64,000 nucleotides of DNA from a virus, in the IMG/VR virus record IMGVR_UViG_3300050821_001198, positions 1 to 64,000 of that record. The stretch is one strand, 5' to 3'. Positions 11,354 to 61,211 of this stretch are shown here, in pieces. Below the pieces are notes generated by a model. That model ran no database searches, was not told where the DNA came from, and saw only the letters and a program-made list of their open reading frames with translations. Every line of letters starts with the position of its first letter. Positions within the stretch are counted from its first letter, which is position 1. The position numbers and the translations under genes are program-made.

Positions 11354-11382
11354 ATTATAGCGGGTGCCATAGTCCCTGTCAA
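11354..11382 (-). promoter_or_regulatory. Consensus promoter, TTGACA-17-TATAAT, leaderless output
   Basis: Perfect boxes at 11382-11377 and 11359-11354. The -35 box overlaps the stop region of the ardC-like gene. ATG 11346 sits at the expected transcription start. Confidence 0.8.
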
Positions 11383-12242
11383 CCCTCGTCCGTCTTAGGG
11401 CCTTCCAGGATGTACTCGGCCGCGTGAGTCGCCCGGTTGGCAGCGGTGACGACAAGCTTCTTGTCGTTGCCCAGCGCCTTGAGCCAAGAGGCGATGTAGG
11501 CCGCACTGTTCTCGACATCGGGAGCGATGCCGACCTTGGCGCAGACCATGGCGGAGCCGATCTCTGCCACAAGCTCTTCGCGGCTGTAGGTCTGTGAGCC
11601 AAACCGTCCGGCGGCGAGATCCTCGCGTGCGAGGCGCTTGCTGTGGCCCGTGCTGTGGATCAGTTCGTGGAACTGAGCCCGGTAGTAGTCCTCCAAGGTG
11701 TTGAACCGCTCGGGCTCGGGCATCCGAACCTCGTCCAGTTGCGGGTTGTAGCTTGCGGCGATGCTGTCGATCTTGTAGGCCGGGGCATCGACATAGCCAT
11801 CCAGCACCGAATCGCCGCGCTCTTCGCACGAGCGGTCTTCAAGGTAGCCGAGACCCTCGGTCATCGGCTCAAGCTCAAGGCCCTCGGTCTGACGGACGTT
11901 GAACACGTAGAAGTAGCGGAGCATCGGGATCTTCTTGGGCTTGCCCTTCGCGTCCACTTCCTTCTTGCTCTCCAGCATCTTGAAGAAGACGACGAGCGAG
12001 CCCTTCTCGCCCTTCTTGACCTTGCCGCCCTTGTCGCTGATCGCCTTGAACGTGCCCCAGCGAGGATCATCGTAGCCCTCGCAGCCCAGCAGCAGAATGT
12101 TGATCCCGCGATAGGGCCGCCCATCGAGATTGCGGGGCATACCTACGGCCGCATCCCAAGGCTTGGTCCAGGGCACGACGCCCTTCTCAAGCTGCGCCAC
12201 GATCTTGTCGGTGACTACCTGGTATGCGTCAAGCTTGGGCAT
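11379..12242 (-). CDS. ardC: ArdC-like antirestriction protein
   Basis: A 287-residue protein with the ArdC layout. The N-terminal ssDNA-binding domain (residues 1-~125) has the typical VPWTKPW and R-P-Y-R-G-I-N patterns. The metallopeptidase-like domain carries H-E-L-I-H at 192-196, followed by G-H-S-K-R and a downstream E-E-L-V-A-E-I-G third-ligand helix. In plasmids ArdC binds single-stranded DNA and protects incoming DNA from type I and II restriction. A phage would use it just after injection, consistent with its strong own promoter. The annotation is secure at family level. Activity is inferred. Confidence 0.88.
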   Translation of the reverse strand: MPKLDAYQVVTDKIVAQLEKGVVPWTKPWDAAVGMPRNLDGRPYRGINILLLGCEGYDDPRWGTFKAISDKGGKVKKGEKGSLVVFFKMLESKKEVDAKGKPKKIPMLRYFYVFNVRQTEGLELEPMTEGLGYLEDRSCEERGDSVLDGYVDAPAYKIDSIAASYNPQLDEVRMPEPERFNTLEDYYRAQFHELIHSTGHSKRLAREDLAAGRFGSQTYSREELVAEIGSAMVCAKVGIAPDVENSAAYIASWLKALGNDKKLVVTAANRATHAAEYILEGPKTDEG

Positions 12243-23233: not shown

Positions 23234-23472
23234 TGCGTCTCCGTAGGCGAGCCAGTGAGATTGACCCTCTGTGGCAAGAGCTTCATGACGTGGAGTACCG
23301 CGTCCGCCGCATCGAGGATGAAGAGCTAGCTGAAGAGGCCGAGGCCCGGGGCGCTGTCAAAGAGACACAGCGGCGGCTCTCCAGACGACATAAGCTTCTC
23401 GTAACTGTCAGCGGCGGTGTCGCCTTCATCTCGACCGTCATTACCATCCTTACCAAGCTCCACGTTCTCTAG
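23233..23472 (+). CDS. Small membrane protein, holin-like topology
   Basis: A 79-residue protein: charged Glu/Arg helix (1-55), then a C-terminal membrane helix (~58-78). Overlaps the kinase-like gene start (TAGTG). Could be a holin or a membrane partner of the kinase-like protein. Confidence 0.6.
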   Translation: MRLRRRASEIDPLWQELHDVEYRVRRIEDEELAEEAEARGAVKETQRRLSRRHKLLVTVSGGVAFISTVITILTKLHVL

Positions 23473-25091
23473 TGGAGGACTGGACCCCGACATCCCTAGG
23501 CGTACCTCACGCTGACGATTTGCGGTCACCGATCTTCGACCTACGCGAGTGGCTAGATCAGTTCCCGTCTGAGCCTCTTCCTCTAACGCCGCATTTACGA
23601 GGCGTTACGGCCGATTCCGGGGATAACGCATCAAAAGAGCAGCTTTGTAAAGAGTGTGGTCGTGAGCACGAGCCCGGTGTTCCGTGTCCGGAGATGAGCG
23701 GTGGACCCACCGTCATGCCCGCGCCACCCAAGACGGCACGTCGTAAGACGGCTCGCCCCGGTGAAGACATGGATACGCCCGTCATTGAGTGCCCACATTG
23801 CTGGGAGCTAGTTGACGACCCCGGTAGCCTCCCCTATAACCAGATTACCTGTCCTGAGTGTGGCGAGAACGTCGAGGGCGGAATTCACTACAAGAGCCGC
23901 AAAGAGGCGTACGGAACAGACGAGGAAGAGGACAAGAGCAAGTTCACCGACCCCCGGTCACCATCATGGGGCGACGACGAGCACCACAACGAACTGAACC
24001 GTCAGAAGGCATGGGGCGGAGTACCTCCGGAGATGCTCGCTGAGAACCCGATCAACAACTTCAATGTTCTGGGCGGCGGCATCAACGACACTTACACGGG
24101 GGACCTGGAGGGTGACGGCCGTGTCATCCTCAAGTCAAAGGCCCAAGAGCGTTCCCCTGAGCGCGAAGATGACGATGACCTAGATGACAATGGGAACTTC
24201 CACCCGACACGTTGGTCAATCAGCCCCGGCTACGACGCTGAGCGCGAGAAGGCGGCTCACATCATCAGTAAGCATCTCGATCTCCCCGGTGCCCGTGTGC
24301 CCACCACAGACATTCGCCACGTTGAGTACCCGGAGTCGGTGTTCAATGAGGATGCGGACTACGACGTACCCACTAGCTGGCAGAGCGGCCCTACGTCCGT
24401 TCAGCACATGATCCCGAACGCCGAGGCGTACGATGAAGGTTACAGGCTCGACCCTGACGAGCTTCGTAATGCCGCACTCTTCGACAGCATCATCGGTAAC
24501 CATGACCGCCACGGTGCCAACGGCCTGATCACCGATGCAGGATTCGTACCCATCGATCATGGCCTTAGCTTCCCTGACAACTCGATCCACGAGCCTTCTG
24601 GGAACTACGACCTCCATGAGTACAACCGCGACTTCTTGGATGGCGCTGAGCTTCAGAGGCACGAGAGGGATCACCTTCAGCGGCTCCTAAACCACCCTAC
24701 CATGTGGAACGAACTGAACGACCTGGATCTGCCTCCTAACACGATTCCCTTTACCCGCAACCGTATACAGGCGATGATCGGCAACAACAAGATGCTCGAC
24801 AACGCCGACATGACAGTGGCGCACGGCGGCGACCCCAATGAGCAGCCGGAATGCGTGCACTGCGGTACTTGGAGGGTCCCCATGGGAGGGAAGCTCGAAT
24901 GCGCCAATGGCTGTGACGAGTGGGAGGACGACCCGGACGCCGACACATGGTCTGGCAACGGCGCAGAACAGCGTGAGCAGGCTCAGCAGGCCCTTAGGCA
25001 GCAGTACCCGCAGCAGCCACTCGATTCAAACATGTTCGCTCCCGGCCAGCCCGAGTGGCCCGAACACCCTCAGTGGCAGACGGTGGGTTGA
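23472..25091 (+). CDS. PI3/4-kinase-like protein with three zinc ribbons
   Basis: A 539-residue protein with GTG start. Two zinc ribbons (C59-x2-C62...C72 and C107-x2-C110...C127-x2-C130) precede a kinase-like domain. That domain has a Gly-rich loop (GGGIND, 201-206), a putative ATP-binding Lys at 221, acidic helix residues near 257-259, a catalytic loop G-N-H-D-R-H-x2-N (342-350) and a metal-binding I-D-H-G at 361-364. This loop order is that of bacterial PI3/4-kinase-like and HipA-related kinases. A third ribbon lies near residue 460, followed by a Gln/Pro tail. Substrate unknown. It ends the plus-strand cassette behind small membrane proteins. Confidence 0.78.
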   Translation: MEDWTPTSLGVPHADDLRSPIFDLREWLDQFPSEPLPLTPHLRGVTADSGDNASKEQLCKECGREHEPGVPCPEMSGGPTVMPAPPKTARRKTARPGEDMDTPVIECPHCWELVDDPGSLPYNQITCPECGENVEGGIHYKSRKEAYGTDEEEDKSKFTDPRSPSWGDDEHHNELNRQKAWGGVPPEMLAENPINNFNVLGGGINDTYTGDLEGDGRVILKSKAQERSPEREDDDDLDDNGNFHPTRWSISPGYDAEREKAAHIISKHLDLPGARVPTTDIRHVEYPESVFNEDADYDVPTSWQSGPTSVQHMIPNAEAYDEGYRLDPDELRNAALFDSIIGNHDRHGANGLITDAGFVPIDHGLSFPDNSIHEPSGNYDLHEYNRDFLDGAELQRHERDHLQRLLNHPTMWNELNDLDLPPNTIPFTRNRIQAMIGNNKMLDNADMTVAHGGDPNEQPECVHCGTWRVPMGGKLECANGCDEWEDDPDADTWSGNGAEQREQAQQALRQQYPQQPLDSNMFAPGQPEWPEHPQWQTVG

Positions 25092-31693: not shown

Positions 31694-34600
31694 CTACTTA
31701 TATACCCGTCTCGGCCCGGTCTGTCCGGGTGGTAGTTGCTGCGAGGGCCGAACCTGGCCCGGATCAAGGTAGCCAATGGCGAATCGTGCCTCGCCCGGAC
31801 CGTTGTCGTCCATGGAGAACATGACTTCGGTCCACCCTGTCATCTCGTCCTGCGCCTGTACCTCGCCCGTGCGTGGGGAGCCGTCAGGACGCCTAGCCGT
31901 GACGAGAACATACTGCCCTGCGCCACCCTGCTCCTGCATGTACTCGTCTTCCATCAACTGGACGATCTGTCCATTCTGGTACTGTGCCGCCCACACGAAC
32001 TTAGAGTATGTGCCGGGACTCTGCACGGGGTTGAACGGGCTCGTGGGCTTGGCGCCCGGTACCGAGACCGCCCACGGAGGGGATGGCTGACCGCCATCTG
32101 TGGTGCCCGGTCCCTGCCACTGCTCCCATAGCTGCATCTGCTGGCCGGGGAACGGCGGGATGACGCCCTGGGGCTGTGCTCGCTGCTGCGGCTGAGCCTG
32201 CTGTGCCGGTGGCATCCCCGGAAGCGGCTGCTGACCCTGATCGGCCGGGAACATGTCCCCGTTAGGCATGAACGTACGTGGGCCGCTGGGAGCCTCTCTG
32301 ACGCCAATCGGCGCTGGGGCGGGTGCTGGGCCGCCTTTCGGCGCTCCTGGCCCCGGAGGGCCTCCTGGCTGCCCTGGGAGCCCGGGTGGACCGCCTGGGG
32401 CTGGAGCCGGTTGCCCAGAGGGTCCCTGTTGCTCGTCATCGTCGTCTACAGGGGCTGAGAGGCTCTTCCAGTATAGCGCGAGAACGTGAGAGCACGGACG
32501 CTGCTCGTACTTCTTCCACTTGCGAGTGCGATCAAATGAGAACTGAGCCCATGGGCACTGGCAGTTGTGAACATTCACCCCATAGACACGGAATGAGTGA
32601 TCCTCTTCGACCTCCATGTCAAACACGGGGCCGTCGTAATCCTCGAAGGTAACGCTCTCGATCTTATACCAAGACTTGCCATCGCGGACGAACCGAGGAT
32701 TGCAGCGAGCGCCGGTCGCCCACCGCACTCGGTAAATCCGTCGCCAGTTCTTGACGAATCCATTACCACTGTTCTCGTCATTCCATGTAAGCGAGGTAGC
32801 ATGACCGAGACGATCAAGAATAAGGCGAAGCTGATGTGCCATCGACCCACTTGTTGTGATGATAGAGGTTCGATTGCCGTCTACATGGCCGTCGCCCGCG
32901 ACATAGGCATCGATAAAAGCCCTCTGGACGGCCAACGGGGCTCGAAGTAGGGAAGGATGAAGTTGCTTCAAATGAGACCCGGTTCCTACCGCCTCTGTCA
33001 CAAGGGCTCGTAGACCCCCGTCCGATACTCGGAAGTCTGTCGTGTCCATACGATCCGTTCCGGGCCATGTATTCATGCGAATGGTCCCCGGCGTCCCGAA
33101 CTTACGTTCGATGATCTCAGATAGCTTCTTGGCGATGGGTCGCTCGTCCCGATGCATACTAAAACCGATCCGATTCTTTGTTGCCTTGATCACGAACCCT
33201 TCAGCCGCATACCATCCCAAGACGGTCCCCATATCCTCATCGATAGTGACGCCAGCAATCACGCAAGTCTCTTCCTCCTGAATCGGAGTGGATGACAGAT
33301 AGCCACCCGCTTGAAGCTTGTTTGCCTGCTCCCACCCGAACCTCGGGTTTAGCGGCCCCTCCCCAAGCTTGATCTTGCCGCGCCAACCAACACAGTCTTG
33401 CAGGTAGTAATCGTCGTTGGCCGACCAGAACTGGTGGTCCTCGGTGCAGACAATAGGCTCATCCACCCCCTGAAGCTTGATTGTCGCCAGCCGCCCTCGG
33501 TAGGGCTTTGACCAATGAGTAAGAACAGCCCGCGAGTTACCCTCATGAGTGAGAACGTGGTCGCCAACACCGATATCCTTGATTGCACGTCGAGTCCCGT
33601 CTGCCATTGTGACAGGGGCATCGGGGAGGAAACAATGCCAGTTGGTGATCACCCGTGACTCCGGGTCCTGGCGGCCGATCTCTACCTCGTACTGACCGTG
33701 GTCGCCCTGCACGGTGCCAACGATGTTCGTGGTGCCGTTGCGGAGTAGGATGACCTGATTACCCTGGATGAGCCGCTTGGCCTTCTCCATGATGTCGTTC
33801 CAGTCTGCCGTCTTGATAGCGCTCTCCCGCCGTTGAACGGCTATGCGCCTAATCCGTTCTGGTGGGATTGGCTCAACTACCCGCCATCCTGAACTCATCA
33901 GCGAAGTGCCAGCCTTACCTCCCGGTAAGAAGTTTTCAGGATCTTCGTATATCGGTCCAGTTGGTTCAACTCGGTAGACATTTGCTTGATCGCCCCCGTA
34001 TAAGCCAGCCTGATCAGGATCAACATGAGCATATGCCATCGTAGGGTGATAGGATTGATTGCGTACCCCTTCGACTTCGCTGAAGTTACCAGGATGTCCT
34101 ATCTCAGAAGCCGGTTGTACGACGTCACCAGGATTGAGTAGAGCATTGGTGCCATGGTAAAAAGGTCCTTCACCCTCATAGGGATAGAAAGGTGATTCAT
34201 CGGTTGGTGGCGGTGTAATACGTCGCATTCCTATCGTTCTGCGACGGGTATTCGGAACGTTTGCGCCAGGGGCATAGTAACTCTCATATGCCCATTGGGA
34301 TGGGTCCATCAACTCTAGGCGATCAGGGGATATCGGCTGAGTCGTCATAGCGGCATCTTCAGGAGGGGATCCCAAGTATGGGTCACCTACAAGAGGTAAA
34401 CCCTCATGACGAACGCGCCACACATCATAGGGGACATGGAAATCAAAGTACTTCATCGCAGCATAATCGTGAGCACTATGTTCATCGCCCCAAAGATAAT
34501 TGCCCTCTGGTGCCTCGATACTCGCATCGGCACCCCGAGCGTGGTCCAAACCATACTGGAGGATGCTATCACGGGAATCAGAGGGCGCAACGTGGTACAT

Positions 34601-35191
34601 CACCTGTGGTGTGCTTGATATTCGGCTCGGATTACATTCTGGGCAACTAGGATTTACCTCAGATGATTCACCTTCATGATATCCCAATTGGTGTGCCAAG
34701 GTTTGCGCTGGTCCTCCGCTAGCCCACGATACATACCGTTGATAATGAGGATGGTCAGGTGGGACTATTTCGGGGCCTGGATGCTGTCCACTTGTCGTGT
34801 CTACGATAGTTCCATCTGGCGCTACATTCCAAGAATGATCGCCGGGGCCAAGTCTTGGACGTACATAGAAACCCGCATCTTGTCTCAGATGCGGCCATTG
34901 ACGTGCTACGGCACTGGCTAGTTCGTAGCACTCTTCCTTGGCTCGATATTTGGCTAATTCATCGCGTGACGGGATCACCTGTGGTGTGCCCGGGTCATAC
35001 TCGCTATCCTCCGTTGGCTCATCCGGCATCTCGGTCTCGGCCAGCTTATACCCATGGTACGCTAGCTCGATCTCCGCGACCTCTCGAAGCGGTCCTCGCG
35101 AGAACACGATCACGCCCTGATCCGTCTTGAGACAGGAAGCGTGCTGAGTGAACCCGATGCAAGGGCGATCTAGGATCTCTTGAAGTTCCAC
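31694..35191 (-). CDS. Multidomain virion protein: ADP-ribosyltransferase-like, SWIM finger, intein
   Basis: A 1165-residue precursor, 808 after splicing. Order: a Cys88/His119/Asp131 module (papain-like pattern), a C-x2-C knuckle (183-186), an ADP-ribosyltransferase-like domain (196-300; Y-H-V-A...G-L), a second, Arr-like one (343-452; FYHGT with His346, N-V-Y-R-V-E-P-T-G-P-I-Y-E-D with Asp417), a DNA-binding-like region, the intein (520-876), a SWIM zinc finger completed by splicing (C877-x-C879...C900-x-H902), a Pro/Gly/Gln-rich linker and a beta C-terminal domain. Arr enzymes modify rifampicin or other hydroxyl groups with NAD+. Here target and activity are unknown. Location upstream of fibre genes suggests a virion component. 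Confidence 0.8.
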   Translation of the reverse strand: MELQEILDRPCIGFTQHASCLKTDQGVIVFSRGPLREVAEIELAYHGYKLAETEMPDEPTEDSEYDPGTPQVIPSRDELAKYRAKEECYELASAVARQWPHLRQDAGFYVRPRLGPGDHSWNVAPDGTIVDTTSGQHPGPEIVPPDHPHYQRYVSWASGGPAQTLAHQLGYHEGESSEVNPSCPECNPSRISSTPQVMYHVAPSDSRDSILQYGLDHARGADASIEAPEGNYLWGDEHSAHDYAAMKYFDFHVPYDVWRVRHEGLPLVGDPYLGSPPEDAAMTTQPISPDRLELMDPSQWAYESYYAPGANVPNTRRRTIGMRRITPPPTDESPFYPYEGEGPFYHGTNALLNPGDVVQPASEIGHPGNFSEVEGVRNQSYHPTMAYAHVDPDQAGLYGGDQANVYRVEPTGPIYEDPENFLPGGKAGTSLMSSGWRVVEPIPPERIRRIAVQRRESAIKTADWNDIMEKAKRLIQGNQVILLRNGTTNIVGTVQGDHGQYEVEIGRQDPESRVITNWHCFLPDAPVTMADGTRRAIKDIGVGDHVLTHEGNSRAVLTHWSKPYRGRLATIKLQGVDEPIVCTEDHQFWSANDDYYLQDCVGWRGKIKLGEGPLNPRFGWEQANKLQAGGYLSSTPIQEEETCVIAGVTIDEDMGTVLGWYAAEGFVIKATKNRIGFSMHRDERPIAKKLSEIIERKFGTPGTIRMNTWPGTDRMDTTDFRVSDGGLRALVTEAVGTGSHLKQLHPSLLRAPLAVQRAFIDAYVAGDGHVDGNRTSIITTSGSMAHQLRLILDRLGHATSLTWNDENSGNGFVKNWRRIYRVRWATGARCNPRFVRDGKSWYKIESVTFEDYDGPVFDMEVEEDHSFRVYGVNVHNCQCPWAQFSFDRTRKWKKYEQRPCSHVLALYWKSLSAPVDDDDEQQGPSGQPAPAPGGPPGLPGQPGGPPGPGAPKGGPAPAPAPIGVREAPSGPRTFMPNGDMFPADQGQQPLPGMPPAQQAQPQQRAQPQGVIPPFPGQQMQLWEQWQGPGTTDGGQPSPPWAVSVPGAKPTSPFNPVQSPGTYSKFVWAAQYQNGQIVQLMEDEYMQEQGGAGQYVLVTARRPDGSPRTGEVQAQDEMTGWTEVMFSMDDNGPGEARFAIGYLDPGQVRPSQQLPPGQTGPRRVYK
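32564..33634 (-). mobile_element. Intein with LAGLIDADG endonuclease
   Basis: A 357-residue intein from Cys520 to Asn876. Block A starts C-F-L-P-D-A-P-V-T-M, block B has T-x2-H (583-586), and block G ends V-H-N followed by Cys877. Two LAGLIDADG helices at ~655-665 (catalytic Glu664) and ~758-768 (Asp767) keep their acidic residues, so the homing nuclease may be active. The +1 Cys is itself the first zinc ligand of the host protein's SWIM finger. Confidence 0.92.
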
Positions 35192-55863: not shown

Positions 55864-56337
55864 CTATGAACTCAGGCGAGGGCTCTTGCAGTTGTTCAGG
55901 AACTCCACCGGGAGGTTCCTAACAGTCCACGATCCATCGTTCGTACGTTCGGCGTAGATCACGTTCCGAATGTCCGACGCGAGCAAAAGCTGAGCACACG
56001 ACGCACAAGGCTTAGAGACCTGAGCAAAGTTGTCACTCCGGGTCAACGTCACTACGAGACAGTCGATATCTCTCGTGCCCCTCCAGATGTTCCAGAGCCC
56101 TTGCAGGGCATGCCGCTCGGCATGAACCGACCGTAGCTCGCCTGCAAGGTCGGAATCGTGAGAGCACCCGTTTGACAAGATGGTGTTGCCCCTAAAGAGG
56201 ACTGCGCCGACCCGGTGCCTACGGAAGACTGAACGCTGAGCCTGCTTAGTCGCACGCCGCCACATCTCTAGAGGCGCGGCCGTCTCCAAGAGACTATCAG
56301 GCGGGACGCTCCCCTTAGGCTCCCTTTGGGGTCTCAT
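55864..56337 (-). CDS. Deoxycytidylate deaminase-like protein
   Basis: A 157-residue zinc deaminase: H72-A-E74 and P-C111-x2-C114, which hold the catalytic zinc and proton shuttle. It would turn dCMP into dUMP for ThyX. Start at ATG 56337 is chosen over 56439 because the longer form is Arg-rich and lies inside the RNA ligase gene. Cytidine deaminase or a DNA-modifying relative are alternatives. Confidence 0.8.
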   Translation of the reverse strand: MRPQREPKGSVPPDSLLETAAPLEMWRRATKQAQRSVFRRHRVGAVLFRGNTILSNGCSHDSDLAGELRSVHAERHALQGLWNIWRGTRDIDCLVVTLTRSDNFAQVSKPCASCAQLLLASDIRNVIYAERTNDGSWTVRNLPVEFLNNCKSPRLSS

Positions 56338-57013
56338 CGTTCTCGCACATGACCTTGTACAGATCATTTGTGGCCGTGTGGAAGACAACGACACCCTCGG
56401 GCGGGAAGAACCCCGGTGACGCCTTCGAGCCGGACGCACGAAGCATCCCTACCACCGAATTGATGCGCTCGGTGGAGAAGGTATGGATGTCGAGGACCGG
56501 GACGGTGTGCAGGTTCTCGGTGAAGAAATCGGGAGCATCCGGATTCATGACAGACGACCACTTCTTGACGTTGAAGAGCGAGAACTTCTTGACACCCTTC
56601 TCTAGTCCGTAGCCCCGCTGGATGCCGGAACCCCACCACTCGCCAAAGTGATATCCGTCGCCCAGGTCCATCGCCAGGCTCACTGCGTTGTCGAATACCC
56701 ACTGAGCGAAGTTGAAGTTGTCCTGCTCTGGAGTGATGAGACGCTTCCGACTCTGGCACCCGACCCAGACAAGCTGTCCGTCAGCCGGATTGATGACGAT
56801 GGTGCCACCCTCGTACCGAATGTGGTCGAACACGCCCTCGTGGGCCACCCGTTCCTTGATGTACTCGGGAACAAGATCGTAGCTGATTATCACCGCTGCA
56901 TTCGTGCCGTCAATCTTCTCGGTGACGACCACGTTGCGATTCAAGCGGCCAATCTTAGGCCACGCCCGAAACTCGGGCTTGATCTCAGTGGCCTCGATTG
57001 TTGCTGAAGACAT
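56315..57013 (-). CDS. RNA ligase (Rnl2-like)
   Basis: A 232-residue nucleotidyltransferase: Lys33 in E-K-I-D-G forms the AMP-lysine intermediate, followed by the N-A-A-V strand, F-x-F ... E-W-W-G-S-G and a C-terminal E-G-V-V-V-F motif. T4 Rnl2-type ligases seal nicks in double-stranded RNA. It may repair tRNAs cut by host defence nucleases. The C-terminal domain of Rnl2 is missing or very short. Confidence 0.85.
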   Translation of the reverse strand: MSSATIEATEIKPEFRAWPKIGRLNRNVVVTEKIDGTNAAVIISYDLVPEYIKERVAHEGVFDHIRYEGGTIVINPADGQLVWVGCQSRKRLITPEQDNFNFAQWVFDNAVSLAMDLGDGYHFGEWWGSGIQRGYGLEKGVKKFSLFNVKKWSSVMNPDAPDFFTENLHTVPVLDIHTFSTERINSVVGMLRASGSKASPGFFPPEGVVVFHTATNDLYKVMCENDETPKGA

Positions 57014-57203
57014 CTCGCTCACCTTCTGCTCGCATTTCGATCTCGTGGGCAATCGTGGAGTCGATCCTGTAGACCTGATCTCCGTCCTCGTCTCGGCCCT
57101 GGTAGGCCGGTCCTAGACACTCTCGCCAACGGGCATCCGTCGCCGCGCCAGCACGGACCCGATCTAGTCGGATCTCTCTATTCGGCTTGAGGACAAACCT
57201 CAT
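56985..57203 (-). CDS. Hypothetical 72-residue protein
   Basis: Small, charged, with an Arg/Glu/Asp-rich profile. ATGA overlap with the gene above. Unassigned. Confidence 0.6.
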   Translation of the reverse strand: MRFVLKPNREIRLDRVRAGAATDARWRECLGPAYQGRDEDGDQVYRIDSTIAHEIEMRAEGERDVFSNNRGH

Positions 57204-57388: not shown

Positions 57389-57417
57389 ACAGTAGCAAAC
57401 AACAAAGCCCCGGTCAA
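57389..57417 (-). promoter_or_regulatory. Promoter whose -35 box lies in the terminator stem
   Basis: TTGACC (57417-57412) is formed by the 3' arm of the terminator hairpin. TACTGT is at 57394-57389 after 17 bases. The operon starting at ATG 57382 is therefore insulated from readthrough and restarted at once. Confidence 0.65.
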
Positions 57418-57436
57418 GCTTCTGGCTTGCCGGGGC
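57390..57436 (-). terminator. Intrinsic terminator after NAMPT-tRNA unit
   Basis: On the minus strand GCCCCGG-CAAGC-CAGAA-GCTTG-A-CCGGGGC forms a 12-base-pair stem followed by TTTGTTGTTT. It closes the NMNAT-NAMPT-tRNA transcription unit. Confidence 0.8.
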
Positions 57437-57446
57437 GATGTTCAGG

Positions 57447-57526
57447 ATGCGGAGGTAGGAATCGAACCGTTTATGACGACCTTCTGGTTATGAGCCAGAC
57501 GAGCTACCTAGCTGCTCTACTCCACG
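57447..57526 (-). tRNA. tRNA-Met(CAT), initiator-like, unusual T-arm
   Basis: The D-arm, anticodon arm (TCTGG-CTCATAA-CCAGA) and variable start A-G-G-T-C-G-T-C are almost those of bacterial initiator tRNA. The first base pair would be C1 x A72, a hallmark of initiators. However, there are about six more bases than normal between the anticodon stem and the TTCGATT T-loop, so the T-stem pairs poorly. CCA is not encoded. It may be decayed or structurally unusual. Confidence 0.75.
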
Positions 57527-57533
57527 GTACTTA

Positions 57534-58946
57534 CTACAACGCTAGGGCCGCATTGTTACGTACCTGATCGAATGTCTGGTACCTGGAGAGCGATCCGTTC
57601 TCGAAGACCTGTTCGAGCAGATTGTGCCCTCCAACCTCGGCCTCCCGCACGGTTCGGACTTCCCCGTTGTTGCTATAAAGAGCCAGCCTGCCTCGCTTGC
57701 TCTTCTTGGTCGAATCCACCGGGTCCTTCCAGACATCGTGCCACTCCCCGTTTCGTCTCTGCGACGATGACTTGAAAGCGTTTCGTTGTGTGTCTCGGTC
57801 GTGCTTCTGGTGCAGCCCTCCGCCCATTCCGAGAGCAGCTATGTTCTCGGGTGCCCACCCGGCATCCACCACCGCCTGCATGATCTCGAAGACAGCCTCA
57901 GGAGTCGGGATACCGTCTCCCCAGAGAGTCCGGATCTGACTCGGGAGCAACTTGAGCCCCTTAGAGTTGTGCTGGATGTAGCCGGTCAGGTTGGCTCCCA
58001 TGCGGTTCAGGAGCGCCACCATCAGTGCGGGCGGCGTCGGATGCTGCTTGGTTGTCGAATCCGGCCGCACCACGAACGGCATGGTGCGGTTCATGATCGT
58101 CGGGAGCCATGGTCCGGTGACCTGATCCACGAAGTCGTAGATGTTGTAAGAGTCGCCCACTTCCGAGAGAATTGAGTCCGGATTGTCCTTCATGATCCTA
58201 AGGGCTTGTTCGTACTCGCCATCTCGACCCAGGGCCGTCATCGTGCTGTGCTCGGTGGCCGCCACAGAGTACGCCAGAGTGTCGAGGTTAGCGTTGTAGT
58301 AGTCCAGAGCCAACTCCATGGCGACAGGAGTATCACTGCCCGCGAAGTTGATTAGGTGACCGGCACCGCCGACTGCGGCCGATTCGTCAGAGGACGCGCC
58401 TCTGTAACCAAAGTCGTGAAGCATGTACGGGAGCCCATCCAGACCGTCTCCGTAGGTCTTCAAGAAACCTGCTAGGCCCTCCTTGATTGTCCGACTGATC
58501 GTCGCAACGTTGGACGAAGACCAGACGTGTGTCAGAAGCGACTCAAGAGCGTTGGTGAGCCAAAAGCAGTCGGGGTCCGTGTTCTCCACGGTCATCATGA
58601 CGTTGGAGATCGGCACAGGAGTCCCCTCGGGGACGGCACTGATACGTAGCGGAAGTCTGCCTCCGTGCTTGTCGATGATGTGCTGCCACCCTTCCTCATG
58701 GAAGAGGGGACGGCCAAAGTGCGCCAGCGCTAGCTTCTTGGCGTGTGCCAACTTCTCCGGTGTCACAACCTGACCCTCTAGGTATTCCTGAAGGAGATAC
58801 TGGAGTCCAAAGAAGACCGTGTATGGGTACTTGGCTCCGTCACGGCTCTCGAAGTAACTGTAGACGCCGGTCGTGTTCGTCGGGTACTGCTTCCAGTGTG
58901 TCAGCTTGTAGCTGTCAGTCTTGGTGATGATGTTCTTGGTTCTCAT
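57534..58946 (-). CDS. nadV: Nicotinamide phosphoribosyltransferase (NAMPT)
   Basis: A 470-residue protein, near the usual NAMPT length. N terminus T-D-S-Y-K-L-T-H-W-K-Q-Y-P, F-F-G-L-Q-Y, H-D-F-G-Y-R-G-x-S-S, catalytic His233 in A-T-E-H-S-T, phosphate-binding R-P-D at 294-296 and G-G-G-L-H-Q-K near the end. It makes NMN from nicotinamide and PRPP, the first step of NAD+ rebuilding. Second gene of the NAD unit, 21 bases behind the adenylyltransferase and followed by a tRNA and terminator. Confidence 0.95.
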   Translation of the reverse strand: MRTKNIITKTDSYKLTHWKQYPTNTTGVYSYFESRDGAKYPYTVFFGLQYLLQEYLEGQVVTPEKLAHAKKLALAHFGRPLFHEEGWQHIIDKHGGRLPLRISAVPEGTPVPISNVMMTVENTDPDCFWLTNALESLLTHVWSSSNVATISRTIKEGLAGFLKTYGDGLDGLPYMLHDFGYRGASSDESAAVGGAGHLINFAGSDTPVAMELALDYYNANLDTLAYSVAATEHSTMTALGRDGEYEQALRIMKDNPDSILSEVGDSYNIYDFVDQVTGPWLPTIMNRTMPFVVRPDSTTKQHPTPPALMVALLNRMGANLTGYIQHNSKGLKLLPSQIRTLWGDGIPTPEAVFEIMQAVVDAGWAPENIAALGMGGGLHQKHDRDTQRNAFKSSSQRRNGEWHDVWKDPVDSTKKSKRGRLALYSNNGEVRTVREAEVGGHNLLEQVFENGSLSRYQTFDQVRNNAALAL

Positions 58947-58967
58947 GGTATCTGTAATCCTTGAGCG

Positions 58968-59870
58968 TTAGGCCCACGCAAGGCCAAGAGCCTCGATGAG
59001 CGGGTGGTGTGTGGGAACGATGTCCCGTTTGTACAAGCCGTCCGCAGGGAACCAACGGATCTCCGCCAGATCATCTCCCGCTTCAAGCGGTCCGTGCAGG
59101 AGCTTCGCACGGAAGAGGAATGTCATGATGCCGTCTGGCTCGCCCTTATACCGCCAGTCATCAACGACAAGAGAGGCGACGTACTCGGGATCAGTGATTG
59201 AAGCGCTTGTCTCTTCGCCCATCTCGCGGCGGGCCGCCGCCTCGGCACTACTGTCAGAGGGGTCGATGAATCCTCCGGGGAAGCGGAACTCAGTCTCTTC
59301 GGGTTTACGCCCCAGCAAGACCTTCGACCCATCCTCGTTGAAGCATGCGATGTCCACGGTGGGGTAAGTCGTATCCCAGCGATTGAAGGTCGCCCAGATG
59401 ACACCCTCTCTGAATTCCGGTGTGGCCTTGGTGCTCCGGGATGCGATCTCCTTCCGCATCTCCGTGCCGCTGACGTAGGATTCCTGCTCGAACTCCCGCG
59501 TTGGGAGCGTTCCGTGGTAGCGAGAGATGAATCCGTCACGTCCTCCATAGACGCACACCGACTGCGAGGGGGTCAAGTTCTTACGGACCTCCCGGTCGAA
59601 GTTGCGGGACCAGAGACGGTCCGACCACGAGTCATCGATGTACCCGACCGTGACGTTCGGGAACTCAGCAAGGACCATCTGCTTCCTCGCCTCGTAGTCG
59701 AGCGGGTTGCCCTGAGAGTTGCGAATCGGGGCGAGCCCGATAAAGACCAGCACTTTGTCGTGCCGATCACAGACCTGTTGGATCAGGTCTCGGTGCGCCC
59801 AATGCAGGGACGCTACCTGGAATCGTCCGACGACGACTCCAACGTCGTATGGCTCTTCTTTGAGCTTCAT
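58968..59870 (-). CDS. natV: Bifunctional NMN adenylyltransferase / Nudix hydrolase
   Basis: A 300-residue protein starting at ATG 59870 (GAGGAA site). The N-terminal nucleotidyltransferase has G-R-F-Q (15-18), an H-x3-H motif (22-26 region) and V-S-G-T-x-M-R (134-140) and converts NMN to NAD+. The C-terminal Nudix domain carries G-G-F-I-D ... R-R-E-M-G-E-E near 200-222, with one extra residue compared with the standard box. It probably hydrolyses ADP-ribose. The pairing with NAMPT is the same as NadV/NatV of phage KVP40 and the NAD+ reconstitution pathway 2 described in phages. Confidence 0.92.
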   Translation of the reverse strand: MKLKEEPYDVGVVVGRFQVASLHWAHRDLIQQVCDRHDKVLVFIGLAPIRNSQGNPLDYEARKQMVLAEFPNVTVGYIDDSWSDRLWSRNFDREVRKNLTPSQSVCVYGGRDGFISRYHGTLPTREFEQESYVSGTEMRKEIASRSTKATPEFREGVIWATFNRWDTTYPTVDIACFNEDGSKVLLGRKPEETEFRFPGGFIDPSDSSAEAAARREMGEETSASITDPEYVASLVVDDWRYKGEPDGIMTFLFRAKLLHGPLEAGDDLAEIRWFPADGLYKRDIVPTHHPLIEALGLAWA

Positions 59871-59937
59871 GTGTTCCTCACGGTTGTATCTGTAAACCCT
59901 CGTAGGGGAACTGCTATTCAGTTGGTACTTACGTGAG

Positions 59938-59966
59938 AGGGTATCAGCCGTATCTAGGTCCGTCAA
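59938..59966 (-). promoter_or_regulatory. Promoter of the NAD+ unit, TTGACG-17-TACCCT
   Basis: TTGACG (59966-59961) and TACCCT (59943-59938) overlap the end of the upstream gene. A leader of about 65 bases precedes ATG 59870. Confidence 0.6.
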
Positions 59967-60400: not shown

Positions 60401-60407
60401 GACTAAG

Positions 60408-60481
60408 CTGGGGAGGCAGGGCTCGAACCTGCGACATGCGGACTAACCACCACGCCGCTCTACCAACTGAGCTACTCCCCA
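60408..60481 (-). tRNA. tRNA, probably Thr(GGT) (Asn(GTT) possible)
   Basis: Acceptor TGGGGAG / CTCCCCA (7 pairs), D-arm GCTC/GAGC and T-arm GCAGG-TTCGAGC-CCTGC are all sound. The anticodon arm has a mismatched stem and an apparently eight-base loop. With U33 in register the anticodon is GGT. Overall similarity is to tRNA-Asn. CCA is not encoded. Confidence 0.75.
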
Positions 60482-60488
60482 AGGAGCC

Positions 60489-61211
60489 CTACCGAACCTC
60501 ATCTACAAACCCTAGCTTGAGAGCATCGTCGGCCGTCATCCACCAGTCCTTACGATCCCAATTGCGCTTGATGAACGCCTTGGTGGTCTTGGGATTGATG
60601 GGCTTCGACCGTTCCTCGAAGATATCAAGGATACGCTCGTGAAACAAGCTCATGAGACGAACCCGATCCTCGACCTGGGCAAAATCACCGATTGCGCCCA
60701 ACGATCCCTGATGGAGTAGGAGGATGCAGTTCTTGCCCATGATCCGCGTCGTGCCAACCTGGAGGATGACGCCGCCCATCGACGCTGCCACCCCAAGAGC
60801 CACCGTGTTGACAGTGTGACCCTTGTCTTGGAGAGACCTGATGAAGTCCACAAGCGCAAGGCCCGCGAAGATCGATCCACCGGGCGAGTTGATCTGAACC
60901 TCAATCTCGCACTCGGGGTTGAGACGTGACCACTCGGTCAGTTTGGTAATGCACGACTTCACCGTATTGTCATCGACTTGTTTGTCGAAGACGTAGACGA
61001 AGTTGTTGGAGTTGTTGGCTTGCTCGGCCGCTTCCTCGCGCTGCTTCGTGCGTAGATTGATGGCACTGATCATGGCATCGTTGCCCGCCTTCTGGGCCTG
61101 TGCCGAGAAGAGGTCGCGTTCGGCCAAGCGAACCTCGGCCAACGCCTCGAATGCGGCGATCTCCGCCTTATGAAGCGGTCGGGTAGTGTCTGCCTTGTCT
61201 GGGGCTGGCAT
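60489..61211 (-). CDS. clpP: ClpP-like serine protease
   Basis: A 240-residue protein. After a charged helical N-terminal extension of ~70 residues comes the ClpP/crotonase-like core: N-S-P-G-G-S (108-113), catalytic Ser144 in A-S-M-G, His167 in L-L-L-H-Q-G. In phages such proteins may mature the head or act with host Clp ATPases. No scaffold or capsid gene is adjacent, so a role in proteolysis rather than head maturation is suggested. Confidence 0.88.
   Translation of the reverse strand: MPAPDKADTTRPLHKAEIAAFEALAEVRLAERDLFSAQAQKAGNDAMISAINLRTKQREEAAEQANNSNNFVYVFDKQVDDNTVKSCITKLTEWSRLNPECEIEVQINSPGGSIFAGLALVDFIRSLQDKGHTVNTVALGVAASMGGVILQVGTTRIMGKNCILLLHQGSLGAIGDFAQVEDRVRLMSLFHERILDIFEERSKPINPKTTKAFIKRNWDRKDWWMTADDALKLGFVDEVR

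What the first reader, a model, noticed from the sequence alone, without database searches (positions are those of the whole stretch)
57390..59966. Self-contained NAD+ rebuilding unit: promoter, NMNAT-Nudix, NAMPT, tRNA, terminator
The sequence shows NAMPT and a bifunctional NMN adenylyltransferase/Nudix protein in one unit with its own promoter and an intrinsic terminator. Phages are known to use NAMPT plus NMNAT (NARP2; KVP40 NadV/NatV) to restore NAD+ after host defences such as Thoeris or SIR2 systems deplete it. New here is the co-transcription with an initiator-like tRNA and the co-existence with phage ADP-ribosyltransferase-like domains that would themselves use NAD+.
Basis: partly seen in the sequence, partly recalled or inferred. 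Interest (0 to 1): 0.7.

Follow-up and report, generated by a model that had tools for sequence, protein, structure and literature searches.

The report
Phage NAD+ cassette with odd tRNA
A phage that probably infects actinobacteria carries a known kind of two-enzyme kit for remaking NAD+, and the kit ends in a start-codon tRNA with a conserved six-base insertion in one stem, a shape I found in many phages and in almost no bacterial genome, and for which I found no published description.

Summary
On the minus strand there is a candidate SigA-type promoter, an NMN adenylyltransferase-Nudix gene, a nicotinamide phosphoribosyltransferase (NAMPT) gene, a tRNA(CAU) 7 nt after the NAMPT stop, and a strong terminator hairpin. 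Both enzymes keep their catalytic motifs. The pair is a known phage NAD+ salvage module (NadV + NadM-Nudix, cited as NARP2); both genes lie within about 1.1 kb in all nine relatives read. So the enzymes are a new member of a known kind. The NAMPT lacks the Namat signature of NARP1. No PRPP synthetase was found in the 128-kb record. One ADP-ribosyltransferase-like domain (Arr-ms) lies about 23 kb away.

The unexpected part is the tRNA. It is initiator-like (C1.A72, CUCAUAA loop) but has 6 extra nt in the 5' T-stem strand. The same insertion occurs in Streptomyces phages and in over 20 other viral contigs; co-variation places it as a 5-nt bulge between pairs 50:64 and 51:63 plus a 1-nt bulge between 51:63 and 52:62. 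Elongator tRNAs of the same contigs and bacterial initiators essentially lack it. The nearest relative of the NAD pair sits beside the same tRNA. A role in EF-Tu/IF2 discrimination or nuclease evasion is inference only.

The parts
59938..59966 (-). candidate promoter TTGACG-N17-TACCCT
   Evidence: sequence; weak consensus match, not found; motif class enriched in this genome, 35 vs 4.5 expected
58968..59870 (-). NMN adenylyltransferase-Nudix (NadM/NatV type), 300 aa, GRFQ...HWAH, SGTEMR, Nudix REMGEE
   Evidence: AlphaFold model (mean pLDDT 75, pTM 0.50) has the bifunctional NadM/ADPR pyrophosphatase structures as its best five PDB matches
57534..58946 (-). NAMPT (NadV type), 470 aa, catalytic residues kept
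58948..58957 (-). TTACAGATAC just upstream of NAMPT; its only other copy in the 128 kb is upstream of NMNAT-Nudix (59895-59886)
   Evidence: role unknown
57445..57526 (-). initiator-like tRNA(CAU), 82 nt, C1.A72, with 6-nt insertion in the 5' T-stem strand (GU-CAUAA-A-C-GG opposite CCUAC)
57393..57436 (-). intrinsic terminator: hairpin 57436-57407 plus T-rich tract
   Evidence: -27.3 kcal/mol, z -3.66, 1 of 200 shuffles as stable
60407..60481 (-). upstream tRNA, Asn-like body with 8-nt anticodon loop (ARAGORN reads a 4-base anticodon GGTT)
   Evidence: flanks the unit
56315..57052 (-). RNA ligase downstream of the unit, closest to Streptomyces phage RNA ligases
   Evidence: Pfam RNA_ligase 2e-12, PHROG 548 4.9e-28, blastn about 72% over 190 bases

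Best explanation
An NAD+ salvage cassette of the known phage NadV + NadM-Nudix (NARP2) kind, in a large myovirus whose host is probably an actinobacterium (inferred). NAMPT joins nicotinamide, a by-product of NAD+-cleaving defences, to host PRPP to give NMN. The NMNAT domain adenylates NMN to NAD+. The Nudix domain most likely cleaves ADP-ribose (the other by-product) or surplus NAD+. Genes and tRNA form one transcript, judged from arrangement only. The last gene is an initiator-like tRNA of a phage-associated class with a conserved bulge in the 5' strand of the T-stem. That insertion lies among the T-stem pairs that set EF-Tu affinity (49:65, 50:64, 51:63) and next to the 51-52 region linked to IF2 binding. 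The likeliest role is to keep the tRNA out of elongation and/or hide it from host factors that read the T-arm, while it supplies phage initiation. Shown: enzyme families, motifs, pairing, transcript layout, conservation of the bulge and its restriction to initiators in the contigs examined. Inferred: enzyme activities, counter-defence role, role of the bulge.
For: Families, motifs and fold. Both genes within about 1.1 kb in all nine other phage loci read, NMNAT first in eight (annotation). Known biology: PMC9503650 section 3.6, NARP2 in PMC11984713. Not Namat: it has GMGGGLHQKHDRD instead of the aromatic GSX..TRD signature. tRNA class: +6 insertion in pSt2308, Alone3, GiJojo and more than 20 viral contigs. 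Insertions of +1, +3, +6, +7, +8 all in the 5' T-stem strand, 87 distinct inserted initiators. Pair 51:63 is Watson-Crick in 26 of 26 distinct +6..+8 tRNAs (A-U 21, G-C 5), against 6 of 26 in the naive register. Elongator tRNAs of the same contigs: 824 of 831 have a normal T-stem, and the 5 flagged fits look like chance. A scan of 84,980 bacterial and archaeal genomes found the +6 pattern in four MAG contigs, one of them an N-run artefact; all four genomes also have an ordinary copy. T-stem and EF-Tu/IF2: PMC11231383. The closest relative of the NAD pair (L026, 53-56% identity) sits 49 nt from the same odd tRNA in a 25-tRNA array.
Against: No activity or transcript data. The candidate promoter is weak. 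The host is unknown, so whether it has NAD+-depleting defences is unknown. The window tRNA has two, not three, G:C pairs at 29-31:39-41 and scores low (34.8 bits). Bulged initiators are a minority of phage initiator tRNAs: 0 of 80 listed in an unselected scan. The bulge function is not tested.
Confidence: 0.78

Rival explanations
1. The cassette is mainly a metabolic booster: it raises NAD(H) for phage nucleotide synthesis (ribonucleotide reductase, ThyX and dCMP deaminase lie nearby) and has no specific counter-defence role.
For: Neighbours on the same strand are a ribonucleotide reductase, ThyX and a dCMP deaminase. NAMPT alone is widespread in phages.
Against: The NadV + NadM-Nudix combination is interpreted in the literature as reconstitution after NADase attack (PMC9503650, PMC11984713). 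An RNA ligase and altered tRNAs flank the unit.
Confidence: 0.3
2. The tRNA is a decaying pseudogene with a damaged T-stem.
For: Low covariance score (34.8 bits) and poor single-sequence fold, z -0.65.
Against: The insertion, with two main alleles, recurs in isolates of different labs, in many contigs and in several host groups, while acceptor and anticodon stems vary and stay paired.
Confidence: 0.07
3. The insertion is a tiny intron that is removed and religated (the phage has an RNA ligase).
For: The RNA ligase gene lies about 400 bp downstream, and the Streptomyces phages with the +6 tRNA also carry related RNA ligases.
Against: The co-variation splits the extra bases into a 5-nt and a 1-nt bulge on either side of a paired 51:63, which does not fit one excised piece. 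+1 bulges form the largest class.
Confidence: 0.08
4. The bulge protects the initiator tRNA from a host tRNA-targeting defence that recognises the T-arm, rather than tuning EF-Tu/IF2.
For: Phage tRNAs are reported to evade anticodon nucleases by mutation (PMC10264068), and Cas12a3 contacts the T-arm (PMC12851939). The flanking Asn-like tRNA also has an altered anticodon loop.
Against: The bulge is confined to initiators, whereas a general T-arm nuclease would press on all tRNAs. Known initiator-specific cleavage by VapC targets the anticodon (PMC10264068).
Confidence: 0.3

Closest known systems
Phage NadV + NadM-Nudix salvage (Vibrio phage type; NARP2)
   Same: Same two enzymes, same fusion of NMNAT and Nudix, adjacent, NMNAT first; predicted nicotinamide -> NMN -> NAD+.
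   Different: NMNAT-Nudix about 23% identical to the Vibrio phage version. Found in a phage with an actinophage-type baseplate protein; tblastn of this NMNAT-Nudix found no actinobacteriophage among annotated phages. Followed directly by an initiator-like tRNA.
NARP1 (Adps + Namat)
   Same: Namat is NAMPT-related and also rebuilds NAD+ after NADase attack.
   Different: Window NAMPT lacks the Namat signature, and the partner is an NMNAT instead of Adps.
Bacterial initiator tRNA-fMet
   Same: CUCAUAA anticodon loop, C1.A72 mismatch, A11:U24.
   Different: 6 extra nt in the 5' T-stem strand, 2 of 3 anticodon-stem G:C pairs, no encoded CCA.
Phage tRNAs altered in the anticodon loop to evade nucleases (PMC10264068)
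   Same: Phage-specific structural change of a tRNA.
   Different: Here the change is in the T-stem and is confined to initiators.

Membership tests
Phage NadV + NadM-Nudix salvage (NARP2-like) | NAMPT-family enzyme with intact active site (human Y18, D219, H247, R311, D313, R392, K400 equivalents) | tested here: met
   Y13, D205, H233, R294, D296, R384, K392 invariant in the ten sequences and aligned to a solved NAMPT; residue equivalences from own knowledge
Phage NadV + NadM-Nudix salvage (NARP2-like) | NMNAT domain (GRFQ, second His of the H-x-x-H motif, SxTxxR) | tested here: met
   G15-Q18, H26, R139 invariant; PHROG 395; 2qjo/2qjt are top sequence and structure hits
Phage NadV + NadM-Nudix salvage (NARP2-like) | fused Nudix domain with REXXEE | tested here: met
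   Pfam NUDIX 8.5e-16; REMGEE present; the Nudix box has a one-residue irregularity before it
Phage NadV + NadM-Nudix salvage (NARP2-like) | the two genes adjacent | tested here: met
   21-nt gap here; both genes within about 1.1 kb in nine relatives
Phage NadV + NadM-Nudix salvage (NARP2-like) | NAD+ synthesis and protection from NAD-depleting defence | not testable with these tools
   needs enzyme and plaque assays
NARP1 (Namat) | GSX..X..X..TRD signature with aromatic residues | tested here: not met
   window has GMGGGLHQKHDRD (signature from PMC12774641)
Bacterial initiator tRNA | CAU anticodon with 1:72 mismatch | tested here: met
   C1.A72
Bacterial initiator tRNA | three G:C pairs at 29-31:39-41 | tested here: not met
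   U29-A41, G30-C40, G31-C39; relatives pSt2308 and Alone3 have all three
Bacterial initiator tRNA | standard 5-bp T-stem without insertion | tested here: not met
   6-nt insertion

The most novel reading that the evidence does not exclude
Phages carry a distinct, so far undescribed class of initiator tRNA whose T-stem has a conserved bulge (1, 3 or 6-8 extra nt in the 5' strand) that makes it an initiation-only or host-invisible tRNA. In at least two phages it is physically coupled to an NAD+ rebuilding cassette, here within a possible counter-defence island (NAD+ restoration, tRNA replacement, RNA ligase).
Probability: 0.4. Interest if true: 0.75.

Novelty: new variant of a known kind. Interest (0 to 1): 0.5.

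Why it matters
The enzymes extend a known counter-defence pathway to a phage with actinophage-type structural genes. The tRNA matters more. T-stem pairs 49:65 to 51:63 decide EF-Tu affinity, and a natural bulge there, restricted to initiator tRNAs of phages, would be a natural experiment on how initiator and elongator tRNAs are told apart, or a sign of an unrecognised host attack on initiator tRNA. Both are directly testable in standard in vitro translation and binding assays.

Tried and rejected
The simple promoter/terminator scan found neither element; the terminator was then shown by folding, and the promoter is only supported by genome-wide motif enrichment. TTACAGATAC upstream of both enzyme genes is not a genome-wide motif (only two copies), so I draw nothing from it. 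I first took the tRNA T-stem as broken and considered damage by template switching with the inverted copy CCGTTTATGG at the next start codon; conservation of the insertion in other phages ruled that out. I considered a bulge directly after an adjacent pair 51 (naive register); only 6 of 26 pair there. Apparent +11 and +12 insertions (two Caulobacter phage genomes and one contig) are variable-loop expansions with an intact T-stem, not this class. The structure model of NMNAT-Nudix is only moderate (pTM 0.50), so its domain arrangement is not interpreted. The window RNA ligase had no tblastn match in the loci held.

Full report
Setting. The window is the first 64 kb of a 128,248-bp virus record. 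Its Baseplate_J protein matches only phages of actinobacteria in the annotated collection (Mycobacterium 196, Gordonia 9, Rhodococcus 4, Mycolicibacterium 1, Eggerthella 1), so the virus is probably a contractile-tailed phage of an actinobacterium (inferred). GC is 56-59%.

Observation. On the minus strand the unit reads: candidate promoter 59966-59938, NMNAT-Nudix 59870-58968, NAMPT 58946-57534, tRNA(CAU) 57526-57445, terminator hairpin 57436-57407 with T-rich tail. NMNAT-Nudix most likely starts at ATG 59870, not at 59966. The hairpin region folds at -27.3 kcal/mol, z -3.7. The promoter is weak by consensus, but TTGACN-N16-18-TANNNT occurs 35 times in the record against 4.5 expected, so the phage appears to use SigA-like promoters. 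The 7-nt gap between the NAMPT stop and the tRNA leaves no room for a separate promoter, so co-transcription is likely but not shown.

Enzymes. NAMPT; catalytic positions conserved. NMNAT-Nudix: GRFQ, H26, SGT..R and REMGEE; best PDB relatives by sequence and by fold are the bifunctional NadM/Nudix enzymes 2qjo, 2qjt, 2r5w (model only moderate). The NAMPT lacks the Namat signature of NARP1. Both genes lie within about 1.1 kb in all nine relatives read. [quoted passage not shown] PMC11984713 cites NARP2 as replenishing NAD+. Membership in this known kind is supported except for the biochemical criterion, which cannot be tested here. No PRPP synthetase was found in the virus record, while the control found one in all 14 reference genomes.

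ART claim. There is one Arr-ms match (34162-33935, E 4.5e-7) in a 1165-aa ORF that also carries intein/LAGLIDADG domains. Phages combining ARTs with NAD+ salvage genes are already described (PMC9503650).

The tRNA. Infernal aligns it as a tRNA with an odd variable/T region. Against ordinary initiators it has 6 extra nt in the 5' strand of the T-stem, and the same insertion is in Streptomyces phage pSt2308. Streptomyces phages Alone3 and GiJojo carry it too, and LuckySocke matches over the full length by BLAST. Pattern scans of IMG/VR found 21 contigs with +6 and G52-C62, 50 with any insertion of 1-28 nt, and 101 when pair 52:62 is left free. Lengths in the loci held are +1 (64), +3 (3), +6 (28), +7 (3), +8 (2), plus a few others (counts include copies). 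The bulge fits uniquely after pair 51 or pair 52 in most +1 cases. In the 26 distinct +6 to +8 sequences the arrangement 49:65, 50:64, 5-7-nt bulge, 51:63, 1-nt bulge, 52:62, 53:61 gives full pairing in all, with A-U (21) and G-C (5) at 51:63, against 6 of 26 in the naive register. These sequences are related, so the co-variation rests on few independent events.

Controls. In the same contigs, 824 of 831 elongator tRNAs have an ordinary T-stem and 5 are flagged by the bulge fit, probably by chance. The one remaining CAU case outside the initiator pattern (L044, CCCATAA loop) is itself an initiator-type tRNA with the +6 insertion. A scan of 84,980 bacterial and archaeal genomes for +6 gave four MAG contigs, one an artefact with Ns; all four genomes also carry an ordinary copy. 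Of 296 Bacteroidota genomes, one (the same MAG) has an inserted initiator, whereas the ordinary pattern was found in 20 of 61. An unselected viral scan listed 80 initiators, all ordinary, so the bulged class is a minority. Two cautions: the loci were partly chosen by the bulge pattern, and ARAGORN may miss other odd tRNAs.

Link to the NAD genes. The nearest relative of the pair, L026 (53 and 56% identity), has the same +6 tRNA 49 nt upstream of NMNAT-Nudix inside a 25-tRNA array. In L003, NAMPT is followed by eight tRNAs. The seven other loci with the pair show no tRNA in the stretch held. So the pair is sometimes embedded in tRNA arrays, and the window looks like a reduced array with two tRNAs.

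Mechanism. NAD+ part: nicotinamide from NADase attack + host PRPP -> NMN -> NAD+; the Nudix domain may clear ADP-ribose to AMP + ribose-5-phosphate, which the host can turn back into PRPP (inferred). tRNA part: T-stem pairs 49:65, 50:64 and 51:63 set EF-Tu affinity, and a G51-G52 motif aids IF2 binding (PMC11231383). A bulge there is expected to weaken EF-Tu binding, which suits an initiator; evasion of a T-arm-reading nuclease is the main alternative. Neither is tested.

Literature. Searches for phage tRNA with T-stem, bulge, insertion and initiator terms found no description of such a class. The library lacks most subscription journals, so this is weak evidence of novelty. Named phages simply annotate it as tRNA-Met.

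Verdict. The NAD+ cassette is real and known in kind. The novelty, if it holds, lies in the initiator-tRNA class that ends it.

Noticed in passing
window 60407-60481 (-): tRNA resembling tRNA-Asn but with one extra base in the anticodon loop (8-nt loop, ARAGORN reads 4-base anticodon GGTT); folds well (z -2.9). Could be a frameshift-type tRNA or one altered to escape anticodon nucleases.
   Followed up: partly
window 31694-35191 (-): 1165-aa ORF with an Arr-like ADP-ribosyltransferase domain (aa 344-419) followed by an intein with LAGLIDADG endonuclease (about aa 520-876).
   Followed up: partly
window 58957-58948 and 59895-59886 (-): TTACAGATAC occurs exactly twice in the 128-kb record, each just upstream of one of the two NAD genes.
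   Followed up: partly
window 56315-57052 (-): RNA ligase next to the altered tRNAs; the Streptomyces phages with the +6 tRNA carry related RNA ligases.
   Followed up: partly
   Followed up: partly
window 23472-25091 (+): 539-aa ORF with a weak PI3/PI4-kinase-like match (E 9e-5, below cut-off).
   Followed up: no
window 11379-12242 (-): ArdC-like anti-restriction protein with zincin metallopeptidase domain.
   Followed up: no
L008:10271-11908 (+): FtsH-like protein (AAA + M41 peptidase) encoded by the phage.
   Followed up: no
window 60489-61211 (-): ClpP-fold protein (PHROG head maturation protease) placed between ThyX and the Asn-like tRNA.
   Followed up: no
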